Made by a program: the position numbers and the translations under genes | Notes under the pieces: model-generated | What the model was told of the DNA's origin: nothing | The model's database searches: none | The model's input: the letters and a program-made list of their open reading frames with translations, nothing else | DNA from: Subtercola lobariae | GTDB lineage: Bacteria > Actinomycetota > Actinomycetes > Actinomycetales > Microbacteriaceae | Length of the DNA stretch: 64,000 bases | Reading direction: 5' to 3' | Assembly (NCBI RefSeq): GCF_014640255.1 | Contig: NZ_BMGP01000002.1 | Coordinates: 372,001 to 436,000 of the forward strand | Shown: positions 53,835 to 56,623 of the stretch, piece after piece | Layout: every line of letters starts with the position of its first letter | How positions within the stretch are numbered: position 1 is the first letter of the stretch

Positions 53835-53852
53835 GAAAAAAAGAGCCCCTCT
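53835..53852 (-). terminator. Distal half of the rpoBC terminator, split by an IS
   Basis: On the minus strand this reads AGAGGGGCTCTTTTTTT: the 3' arm and U-tract of an intrinsic terminator. Its 5' arm, AAAGGGCCCCTCT, is 2.7 kb away at 56584-56596, beyond the IS. Together they make a 13-bp stem (one G-U), and with the flanking bases a UUCG loop. Confidence 0.8.
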
Positions 53853-53859
53853 ACCGGGC

Positions 53860-53882
53860 GGTTTCAAGGGGTCGTTGCAACA
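53860..53882 (+). repeat. IS30 left inverted repeat
   Basis: Starts GGTTTCAAGG and ends GTCGTTGCAACA; 20/23 match to the reverse complement of the right end at 56551-56573. Confidence 0.85.
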
Positions 53883-54299
53883 TGGTGGATGGTTAGGTAG
53901 AAAGTAGCAGGTTCCGTAAACGCTCGGCTGGGGTATCCCAGCCGAGCGTTTTGCGTGGTCGGCTGTTGAGTTCCTGCGCGACGTGTTCGAGATCTTCGAT
54001 GCCGTAGGCGGTCAGGTCGGTGCCCTTCGGGAAGTACTGCCGGAGTAGCCCGTTGGTGTTCTCGTTCGACCCGCGCTGCCAGGGGCTGGCGGGGTCGCAG
54101 AAATATCAGCGATCCGCGCAGGTGTGCCGGCAGGGTACTCATCGTGGCCACGAGGCCGTCGCGGACTTCCTCGGCGGTATGGGTGCGGGGAAGGTGCACG
54201 AGCATCACGTAGCGGGTCGTGCGCTCCACCAGTGTCGCGATCGCGGACTGGTTCAGCGTGCCGGTAAGAAGGTCCCCCTCCTTACGCTGTTGATGTCGG

Positions 54300-54475
54300 G
54301 ATTGTCGTAGTGTTCCGATGACTCTCGGGTGACGGGTATGGCTTAGATCTCCTTGCCGCCTGGACGGCTTACTGGGAATGGCCGCCCGCCGCCCGTGTGA
54401 TGACTCGACCGCTGATTGAGAATTGCGACTCTGATCGCTGTGTAAGGACGTGCCGGCGTGGTTATCCGCAGGGAC
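54300..54475 (+). ncRNA. Predicted IS110 bridge RNA
   Basis: IS110 recombinases use a bridge RNA from the non-coding left end, with one loop pairing the target and one the donor ends. Here the donor loop has ATTGAGA (54415-54421), identical to the right end (55716-55722), and GTAAGGA (54442-54448), complementary to the left end TCCTTAC (54279-54285). Between them is the stem GCGA-CTCTGA-TCGC. The target loop has AGATCTCCTT (54345-54354), 8/10 like the left target, and TGGGAA (54373-54378), complementary to the right target TTCCCA (55723-55728). Between them is GCCG-CCTGGA-CGGC. Both loops share the same plan (4-bp stem, 6-nt loop). RNA ends are estimates. Confidence 0.8.
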
Positions 54476-54504
54476 CATAACTCCACAACAGATAGGGAAT
54501 TTCA

Positions 54505-55708
54505 GTGCCGAAACTCTGGGCCGGAATCGACGCCGGCAAACACGAACACCACTGCGTCGTGATCGACGATGCCGGGAAGAAGCTGCTCTCAGAACGTGTC
54601 GAAAACGACGAGGCCACCCTTCTCGAATTGATCGCCACCGCCGTTGACTTAGCAGCCGGCGAGCAGATCATATGCGCCACGGATCTCAATGCGGGCGGAG
54701 CTGCCCTGCTGATCAGCCTGCTCGCCGACAACGGCCAGCAGTTGCTTTACATCCCCGGCCGGATCATCCATCACGCCTCTGCGACCTATCCGGGGGGATG
54801 GCAAAACGGATGCCAAAGATGCTGCGATCATCGCCGACCAAGCCCGCATGCGCCGCGACTCGCAACCCGTGCGTAACGGCGACCAGATCAGCGTCGATCT
54901 GCAACTGCTGACCTCGTACCGCACCGATGTGATGTGTGGCCGGGTGCGGGTCATCAACCGGCTCCGCGCTGTGATGCTTGAGTACTTCCCTGCTCTGGAG
55001 CGGGCATTCGACTACTCCAAAAACAAAGCAGCCCTGGTAATGCTGTCGCAGTATCAGACCCCTGAGGCGCTGCGCCGCATCGGACGTAACCGGCGGCAAG
55101 CCTGGCTGAAAGCTCGCGGCTGCCGTAACAGCGCCGCGGTAGCAAGCAAAGCCATCGATGCTGCTCAAGCGCAACACACGACCCTCGCAACCCAGGCCAT
55201 GGGCGCAGTCCTGGTCGGCCGCCTCGCAAGCCAGCTGCAGGCAATCGACCTCACCCTCACCGAGCTCGACAACCAGATCGCCGACCTCTTCCAGCACCAC
55301 GGTGACGCCGAAATCATCGTCAGCATGCCCGGCTTCGGCCCCCTGCTTGGCGCGACTTTCCTAGCAACTACCGGCGGCACCATGGATGCCTTCGACTCAG
55401 CCGACAGACTCGCCACAGTTGCAGGGCTCGCCCCAGCACCACTGGACTCGGGACGTATCAGCGGTAACATCCACCGCCCCCGCCGCTTCAACCGGCGGCT
55501 CCTGCGAACCTGCAACCTCGCCGCCCTTTCAAGCCTGAAGAACAGCCCAGCATCCAGGACGTTCTACGACCGCAAACGACGAGAAGGCAAGAGTCACAAA
55601 CAAGCCCTCCTGACCCTCGCTCGACGCCGAATCAACGTTCTCTGGGCCATGCTCCGCGACCACAAACCATACCTCGAACCCGTCGTTACGCTACTCAACG
55701 CTGCTTGA
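54505..55708 (+). pseudogene. IS110-family transposase with one frameshift
   Basis: GTG start with AGGGA upstream. DEDD (RuvC-like) domain: AGIDAGKHEHHCVV, ATDLNAGGAALLISLL, then after the break DGKTDAKDAAIIADQARMRRD. C-terminal Transposase_20 domain: IVSMPGFGPLLGATFLATTGG, LATVAGLAPAPLDSGRISG (catalytic Ser region), RLLRTCNLAALSSLK. A single extra base in CCGGGGGG (54790-54797) throws the frame; removing it restores YRGDGKTDAKDA. About 400 aa if intact, normal for the family. Otherwise well preserved, so the shift may be recent, a sequencing error in the homopolymer, or less likely a recoding site. Confidence 0.85.
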
Positions 55709-56550
55709 CAACAGCATTGAGATTCCCAATGACCTGGAACGGCGCGGTCCTCGACCTCGGCCGGCCGGTCGGCGATCATGACCATCGGGTCAACGAACCG
55801 GGGGCGGCGCGCCTGGCCGGTGTTCTGGGGTTTGCGGCGGGTCCGCCCGGTGCGCAGCGCCGCCTGCACTTCCTTACGCAGCCCGCCGCGGGCCTGGAAG
55901 TAGAGGGCCTGGTAGATCGTCTCGGGTGACACACGCATCTCCTGATCCTCTGGATACTCCCTGATCAAACCATGACTGATATGTTCGGGAGACCAGCGGA
56001 TCGCCAGTTTCTCTTTCACGAAGCTGCGCAGTGCTGGCGGGACCGCTAACTTCGAGTCCTTCGGCCGCGGTCGGCGCTGCGCTGCGACCCGGTGCGCGGC
56101 ATAGGGCTCGTAGGTGCCCGTGCCTGTCGCGTTGCGACGCAACTCCCGGCGGCGACCTCCCGATCAGCTTCGCGATCGCGCGGATCGAGGCACCCGTCGC
56201 GGTGAGGTCGCGGATATTCTCCCGCTCCGGCAATGACAAGTAGCGTGCATCGATGACCGCCTCGAGTGCCGACACGGTTGCGGGTATGAACGTAGTCACC
56301 CCTCGTTTGTAGTCGATCACCCGACCATCGGGATAAATGCGGCGGTTGTTGGTCTTGCGGATGCCCTGATCCCAATCCCGAGCTGTGCGAATGCTCACAC
56401 CGCTCTGACGAGCGGCCGCTGATCGGTGAACCCCGGTGCGGCGTAACGCCAGCGAAAAACCCCGCCTTCTCCTCCCTCGTGTACACACGCTTGATTCCTG
56501 AATTTCCCTTTAACGAAAACACGGCCGTTGCAACTCCCAGAACTACTGAG

Positions 56551-56573
56551 TGTTGCAACGACCGCTAGAACCC
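56551..56573 (-). repeat. IS30 right inverted repeat
   Basis: Reverse complement begins GGGTTCTAGCGG and ends TCGTTGCAACA, pairing with the left repeat at 53860-53882. Confidence 0.85.
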
Positions 56574-56583
56574 AAGCCGAAGC

Positions 56584-56596
56584 AGAGGGGCCCTTT
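56584..56596 (-). terminator. Proximal half of the rpoBC terminator
   Basis: Minus-strand AAAGGGCCCCTCT followed by GCTTCGG, 28 bp beyond the rpoC stop: the 5' arm and the start of a UUCG loop, interrupted by the IS30 element. The pairing arm and U-run are at 53835-53852. Confidence 0.8.
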
Positions 56597-56623
56597 CAGG
56601 AGTAGAACATCGCGCGTGAACGG

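What the first reader, a model, noticed from the sequence alone, without database searches (positions are those of the whole stretch)
54278..54504. Complete bridge-RNA logic readable in an IS110 leader
The 227-bp left end holds two guide loops of the same design, a 4-bp stem with a 6-nt loop between two guides. Donor guides ATTGAGA (54415-54421) and GTAAGGA (54442-54448) match, in the correct sense, the right end (55716-55722) and left end (54279-54285) of the same element, 7/7 each. Target guides AGATCTCCTT and TGGGAA match the flanking IS30 sequence on the left (8/10, one more if G-U counts) and right (6/6). IS110 bridge RNAs are known; this particular RNA and its guide pair look undescribed, and all four guides can be read directly.
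Basis: partly seen in the sequence, partly recalled or inferred. Interest (0 to 1): 0.86.

Follow-up and report, generated by a model that had tools for sequence, protein, structure and literature searches.

The report
Guide-RNA transposon aimed at transposase genes
This is a decayed copy of a small jumping gene that carries its own guide RNA; the related copies examined sit, wherever a junction could be read, in the codons for a catalytic residue of another family of jumping genes.

Summary
Window 54280-55722 is an IS110-group element whose 5' leader (54326-54466) encodes a bridge RNA. Donor guides match both element ends 7/7. Target guides match the split IS30 transposase gene: right 6/6, left 7/10 to the actual flank (8/10 to the inferred empty site). 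Across 35 leaders the two-loop structure covaries (88 double-change cells against 23.5 shuffled, 0 of 500). In 24 hand-picked representatives the left guide fits its own site 7.04/9, other sites 4.52/9 (0 of 100,000 permutations; stricter set of 19: 6.95 against 4.52).

Elements identical over 1,050 nt lie in IS30s 76.6% alike over the 400-nt left flank: separate insertions. Mismatches concentrate at third codon positions (21/42 against 8/98). In three distinct relatives a second IS110-type element is nested in the first one's right end.

The window copy is a relic: both transposase genes are frame-broken. The mechanism is known (IS621); the target and nesting were not seen in the papers searched.

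The parts
54280..55722 (+). IS110-group element, left-end CCTTAC to right-end ATTGAGA; flanking core dinucleotides CT (54278-54279) and TT (55723-55724)
   Evidence: sequence; close relatives share the same ends; one full copy in its genome, the only other hit being 70 nt
54326..54466 (+). bridge RNA core: target-binding loop (54326-54395) and donor-binding loop (54399-54466)
   Evidence: RNAalifold and pair counts on 35 leaders, columns mapped to the window
54345..54354 (+). left target guide AGATCTCCTT
   Evidence: 7/10 to actual left flank 54270-54279, 8/10 to inferred empty site; own-site test in relatives
54355..54368 (+). inner hairpin of target loop (4-bp stem, 6-nt loop)
54371..54378 (+). 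right target guide ACTGGGAA
   Evidence: TGGGAA complementary to right flank TTCCCA 6/6; RTG own-site test 0 of 100,000 permutations
54415..54421 (+). left donor guide ATTGAGA
   Evidence: identical to right end 55716-55722; conserved in close relatives, altered in some outgroups
54425..54438 (+). inner hairpin of donor loop (4-bp stem, 6-nt loop)
54442..54448 (+). right donor guide GTAAGGA
   Evidence: reverse complement of left end 54279-54285; at least 7 positions fit in 42 of 49 rows
54505..54795 (+). recombinase gene, N-terminal part (RuvC-like DEDD domain); the frame breaks near its end
   Evidence: Pfam DEDD_Tnp_IS110; frame change 54791-54795
54791..55708 (+). recombinase gene, remaining part in another frame (Transposase_20 domain)
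   Evidence: PDB sequence hits IS621 8wt6 and ISCro4 9t56
53899..54279 (-). C-terminal half of the IS30 transposase gene (from the G of HWEGD onward), target left flank; itself frame-broken near 54101-54105
   Evidence: tblastn with annotated IS30 transposases
55723..56398 (-). N-terminal half of the IS30 transposase gene, ending in codons H-W-E, target right flank; frame-broken near 56121-56156
53857..56576 (-). host IS30 element with inverted repeats GGTCGTTGCAAC (53870-53881 and 56552-56563); outer limits approximate, by likeness to ISLxc3 repeats
   Evidence: sequence; ISLxc3 repeats quoted in PMC2516522 (passage)

Best explanation
The leader encodes a bridge RNA of the IS110 group. Its donor loop pairs with the joined ends of the excised circle. 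Its target loop pairs with the H-W-E-G-D codons at the start of the catalytic domain of an IS30-family transposase gene, on both sides of an NT core. The recombinase joins the circle to that site and splits the IS30 gene. The lineage specialises in this site: it is among the most conserved stretches of IS30 genes, and one guide can serve many IS30s because its mismatches fall mostly at third codon positions. Shown here: RNA structure by covariation, guide matches, target identity, independent insertions, site conservation. Inferred from IS621: transcription, circle intermediate, recombination. The window copy is a relic with broken frames.
For: Domains; ends and guides; covariation over 35 leaders, 19 pairs with two-sided change, 0 of 500 shuffles; own-site against swapped-site tests, LTG over 24 and RTG over 17 representatives, 0 of 100,000 permutations each, also without hand-set and similar-guide rows (19 and 15). 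17 of 17 left flanks examined (14 listed first, plus L096, L014, L093) are IS30 transposase genes that begin at residue 229-230 next to HWE; for the window this shows. Empty sites in 4 intact IS30s. Element 100.0% identical with flank 76.6% (L094/L095) and 98.7% with 77.3% (L003/L004). One branch 100/99. HWEGD D-57/58-D-33-E spacing in 4 of 4. Target 16-mer ranks 17 of 957 over 32 IS30s. Third-codon mismatches 21/42 against 8/98.
Against: No expression data. Single-sequence fold not better than shuffles. The window copy and its IS30 are frame-broken. Within the IS30 branch guides do not track the individual IS30. One outgroup, L149, fits its site poorly on both sides (3/9 and 2/9); only the right side is explained, by a nested second element. 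Covariation alone would also fit a DNA cruciform. The two outermost columns of the guide alignment (mismatches 6/14 and 9/14) lie outside the 10-nt guide and were left out of the codon-position count.
Confidence: 0.9

Rival explanations
1. One old insertion into an IS30, after which the IS30-IS110 composite spread and diverged as a unit, so the shared site is common descent and not targeting.
For: All copies share one site, and guides inside the branch hardly vary. L095 and L096 share flank (99.2%) and element (98.5%), so some pairs do look inherited.
Against: L094/L095 elements are identical over 1,050 nt while the IS30 left flanks are 76.6% alike; L003/L004 98.7% against 77.3%; L094/L015 96.3% against 69.8%.
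Confidence: 0.04
2. The recombinase protein alone reads the site; the leader is a structured regulator of translation and the guide matches are incidental.
For: Expression and function of the RNA are untested here; the leader lies directly upstream of the gene.
Against: Guides match their own sites far above swapped sites in the representatives while the recombinases stay related. Published work on IS621 and ISEc21 shows RNA guidance (PMC11208160 sections 6, 8, 12; PMC11187229 passages).
Confidence: 0.03
3. The site is not sought; IS30 genes are merely abundant neutral landing places.
For: IS30-like genes are common in this class (50 of 138 genomes).
Against: The junctions read fall on the same 16 bp, not across IS30, and both guides spell it.
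Confidence: 0.02

Closest known systems
IS621 / IS110-group bridge RNA (Durrant 2024, PMC11208160; Hiraizumi 2024, PMC11208158)
   Same: Leader position, two internal loops, four guides in the same senses, a core whose second base is nearly always T, recombinase family.
   Different: IS621 uses REP elements (passage); here the target is a protein-coding catalytic motif of another transposase family. Durrant reports low mismatch tolerance (section 8), whereas natural sites here carry up to 3 third-codon mismatches.
IS1111/IS110 seekRNA elements (Siddiquee 2024, PMC11187229), including ISEc11/ISXne4 natural reprogramming
   Same: Related elements use different targets through changed guide sequences (passages).
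   Different: IS1111 usually has the non-coding region downstream; here it is upstream. The word IS30 does not occur in that main text.
IS4321/IS5075 on Tn21-family terminal repeats (Partridge and Hall 2003; title seen in a reference list, content recalled)
   Same: An IS110/IS1111-family element that specialises on another mobile element.
   Different: It targets terminal repeats and not codons of the catalytic centre.

Membership tests
IS110 group of IS110 family | DEDD RuvC-like N-terminal domain and Transposase_20 C-terminal domain | tested here: met
   Pfam above cut-off for both parts; IS621 and ISCro4 in PDB by sequence
IS110 group of IS110 family | long non-coding left end upstream of the gene, short right end | tested here: met
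   225 nt upstream, 14 nt downstream of the ORF
IS110 group of IS110 family | bridge RNA with two internal loops | tested here: met
IS110 group of IS110 family | guides pair with bottom strand of left and top strand of right target and donor | tested here: met
IS110 group of IS110 family | core dinucleotide with T second | tested here: met
   CT left, TT right in window; CT or TT on the left in the IS30 branch, NT in most others, with exceptions such as L011 and L078
IS110 group of IS110 family | catalytic DEDD and serine residues intact | not tested
   the window copy is frame-broken; residues were not mapped
IS110 group of IS110 family | RNA expressed, binds recombinase, directs recombination | not testable with these tools
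   needs bench work
IS1111 group | non-coding RNA downstream of the gene | tested here: not met
   leader is upstream, right end is 14 nt

The most novel reading that the evidence does not exclude
A branch of RNA-guided transposons has specialised on the codons of the first catalytic aspartate of IS30 transposases, with a guide that reads protein-constrained bases and tolerates third-position changes. A second RNA-guided element has in turn specialised on the right ends of such IS110 elements, giving a three-storey nest in which the two upper layers are each placed by their own guide RNA.
Probability: 0.75. Interest if true: 0.65.

Novelty: new member of a known kind. Interest (0 to 1): 0.52.

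Why it matters
Bridge RNAs are known, but what natural ones hunt is little charted. Here a whole branch uses some of the most constrained codons of a rival transposase as its home. That gives a natural series of guide-site pairs for measuring mismatch tolerance, and a case of mobile elements preying on mobile elements through guide RNAs. The guide behaves like a probe for a protein motif, much as homing introns and inteins favour active-site codons (analogy recalled).

Tried and rejected
Pattern search for the leader motif ACTGGGAATRGCCGCC hit 4 of 396 phylum genomes, the window's own included, and 12 viral contigs. The leader profile recognised only the window copy among those 16 loci; the rest look like chance. 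The phage collection held only 2 records with a 115-nt partial match. The right half of the IS30 has no second DNA copy in the same genome, so intact IS30s from plasmids served as empty sites. A composite-transposon origin was tested and rejected. Single-sequence folding gave no signal.

Rows dropped: L115 (no target loop) and L063 (no donor guide) left 49 table rows. The 24 representatives were picked by hand from these; L001 stands for the whole IS30 branch. L053, L050, L079 and L077 had left ends set by eye, because the automatic search window stopped short; three of them are among the 24. L068, L144 and L146 have similar guides. One search repeats the tests without L053, L079, L077, L144 and L146 (left guide) and without L144 and L146 (right guide). 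In one search, 14 table rows had no long enough transposase match (L138, the window again, among them) and L014, L093 and L019 were left out as near-duplicates; L005 and L017 were added. L080, a distant relative of the second element with another left flank, was not in the test.

Papers: PMC11208160 outline, sections 6, 8, 12 and passages; PMC11208158, PMC11187229, PMC12500396, PMC2516522, PMC9333248 passages only. That IS110 specialising on IS30 catalytic codons, or on IS110 right ends, is not described rests on searches, whose other hits were seen as listings and not opened, in an open-access library without preprints. ISfinder was not searched.

Full report
Observation. The coordinates in the finding were re-read. 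The donor guides equal or complement the two element ends 7/7. The two loops share the 4-bp stem and 6-nt loop design. The right target guide fits 6/6. By simple arithmetic, a given 7-mer is expected about 0.013 times in a 227-nt leader, so two specified donor matches by chance are unlikely even before looking at relatives.

What it is. The gene is an IS110 recombinase (PF01548 and PF02371), with IS621 and ISCro4 as sequence relatives of solved structure. The long leader is upstream and the right end is short, as in the IS110 group and unlike IS1111. The genome holds one full copy.

RNA. A leader profile gave 51 hits in 134 loci scanned. Thirty-five non-redundant leaders were aligned. The consensus has 37 pairs in four helices: 96.7% of cells pair, 19 pairs change on both sides, and there are 88 double-change cells against 23.5 in shuffles (0 of 500). 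Sliding the partners destroys most of the signal. Against this, the window leader alone folds no better than its shuffles (z +0.44), and no Rfam family reaches its gathering score in the window.

Guides against sites. Left and right targets were read at the junctions. Twenty-four representatives were picked by hand from 49 rows, the IS30 branch counted once. The best left-guide match to the own site averages 7.04 of 9, against 4.52 for other sites (single swapped pairs reach 8). Over the 17 with a readable right end the right guide scores 6.82 against 3.94. No permutation of 100,000 reached either sum. Without three representatives whose left end was set by eye and two with guides like L068, 19 give 6.95 against 4.52 for the left guide; without the latter two, 15 give 6.80 against 3.83 for the right guide; again 0 of 100,000. 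Examples: L071 left guide 9/9; L007 right guide 9/9, running to 12 in the sequence. The exception is L149 (3/9 and 2/9). Its right end is interrupted by a second element; its left side is unexplained.

The IS30 branch. In the tree of 34 transposases the IS30-site copies lie on one branch (100/99) of 14 rows. Twelve were labelled IS30 beforehand; the other two, L005 and L017, were unlabelled in that run (so the label count gives 3 changes) but have the IS30 right junction too. L005 is truncated on the left. Seventeen left flanks were searched with annotated IS30 transposases; two of them (L014, L093) repeat L004 and L003, and L096 is close to L095. All 17 hit IS30 genes; 16 begin at residue 229 or 230, next to HWE, and the window shows the same, its IS30 frame being broken. 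Of 15 right flanks, ten hit IS30 (L003, L093 and L040 ending at residue 226, the others at the HWE codons), one is only 9 nt long, and four (L004 and its repeat L014, L015, L097) run into a second element after which IS30 resumes.

Independent insertions. L094 and L095 are identical over 1,050 nt of element but their IS30 left flanks (400 nt) are 76.6% alike. L003/L004 give 98.7% against 77.3%, and L094/L015 96.3% against 69.8%. L095/L096, with flanks 99.2% alike, look inherited.

Why that site. HWEGD opens the integrase-core domain (PF00665). In 4 of 4 IS30 proteins its D is followed by D after 57-58 residues and E after 33, within the D-(54-61)-D-(33)-E rule quoted for IS30 in PMC2516522 (passage), so it is the first catalytic Asp by spacing. 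Among 32 IS30 genes (28 from genomes of the class, 4 from plasmids) the 16-bp target ranks 17 of 957 windows in conservation. The leading blocks are those of the three catalytic residues plus one more, VYFCDPH.

Third codon positions. Over the 14 guide-site pairs, mismatches at the third positions of the D, G and E codons number 21 of 42, against 8 of 98 at the other seven positions of the 10-nt guide (Fisher p about 1e-7; cells are not independent, since copies are related). Two outer columns, beyond the guide, were not counted (6 and 9 of 14). The closely related elements L094, L095, L097 and L015 share one left guide and sit in four versions of the 10-nt site that differ only at third positions. 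Guides do not track their own IS30 inside the branch (19,750 of 100,000 permutations as good). The simplest reading is a guide matched to protein-constrained bases that tolerates synonymous variation.

Second storey. In L004 (and its repeat L014), L015 and L097 a second element of about 1.38 kb with an IS110-type ORF lies between TTGACA and ATTGAGA of the first element's right end. The second elements are 97-99% alike while the first elements L004/L015 are 76.6% alike, so these insertions are separate. Seven distinct copies with a readable left junction and at least 74% identity (L004, L152, L015, L097, L181, L182, L149) sit within a few bases after TTGACA; in L181 the neighbour is annotated as an IS110 transposase, in L182 as a transposase. 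Four more distant relatives (65-68%: L183, L156, L184, L080) have other left flanks. A stretch near position 73 of its leader fits its own left site in six hand-chosen classes; only the identity arrangement of 720 reaches the observed sum (L080 not included). That the ORF is IS110-type rests on its likeness to annotated IS110 transposases. Its RNA structure was not modelled.

State of the window copy. The recombinase frame breaks near 54791-54795; the IS30 gene breaks near 54101-54105 and 56121-56156. The adjacent 1,299-aa rpoC-like ORF is open (gene name recalled from its sequence), which favours decay over a poor assembly. The copy is best seen as a fossil.

Known or new. Durrant 2024 showed bridge RNAs and covariation family-wide (sections 6, 8, 12); the word IS30 does not occur in that main text nor in the seekRNA paper's. 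Targeting another mobile element has a precedent in IS4321/IS5075 on Tn21 repeats (title only). So the mechanism is a known kind. The target, its coding logic and the guide-directed nesting were not found in searches, whose hits were mostly seen as listings.

Noticed in passing
L004:2312-3692; L015; L097; L152; L181; L182; L149: A second IS110-type element (about 1.38 kb) nests in the right end of other IS110 elements, shortly after TTGACA; a leader stretch near its position 73 matches that site and changes with the site in distant relatives.
   Followed up: partly
54286-54320: The window leader is 3 to 9 nt shorter between the left end and the conserved CGTAGTGT stretch than several close relatives; this might affect a promoter.
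   Followed up: no
53840-53881 and 56552-56600: The host IS30 has repeats like ISLxc3 of Leifsonia and sits beside the rpoC-like gene between two halves of what looks like an inverted repeat (GAGCCCCTCT / AGAGGGGCCC), possibly a terminator.
   Followed up: no
L149: An outgroup element whose left guide does not fit its left flank (3/9); cause unknown.
   Followed up: no
L040: Right junction reads TTCCGACTTCAATGG where most other copies read TTCCCARTG, as if a few bases were added after insertion; its transposase also matches in two frames.
   Followed up: no
54278-54279 and 55723-55724: Left core is CT and right core TT; in the branch the left core is CT or TT while the right is TT wherever it was readable, compatible with donor and target cores that differ.
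   Followed up: partly
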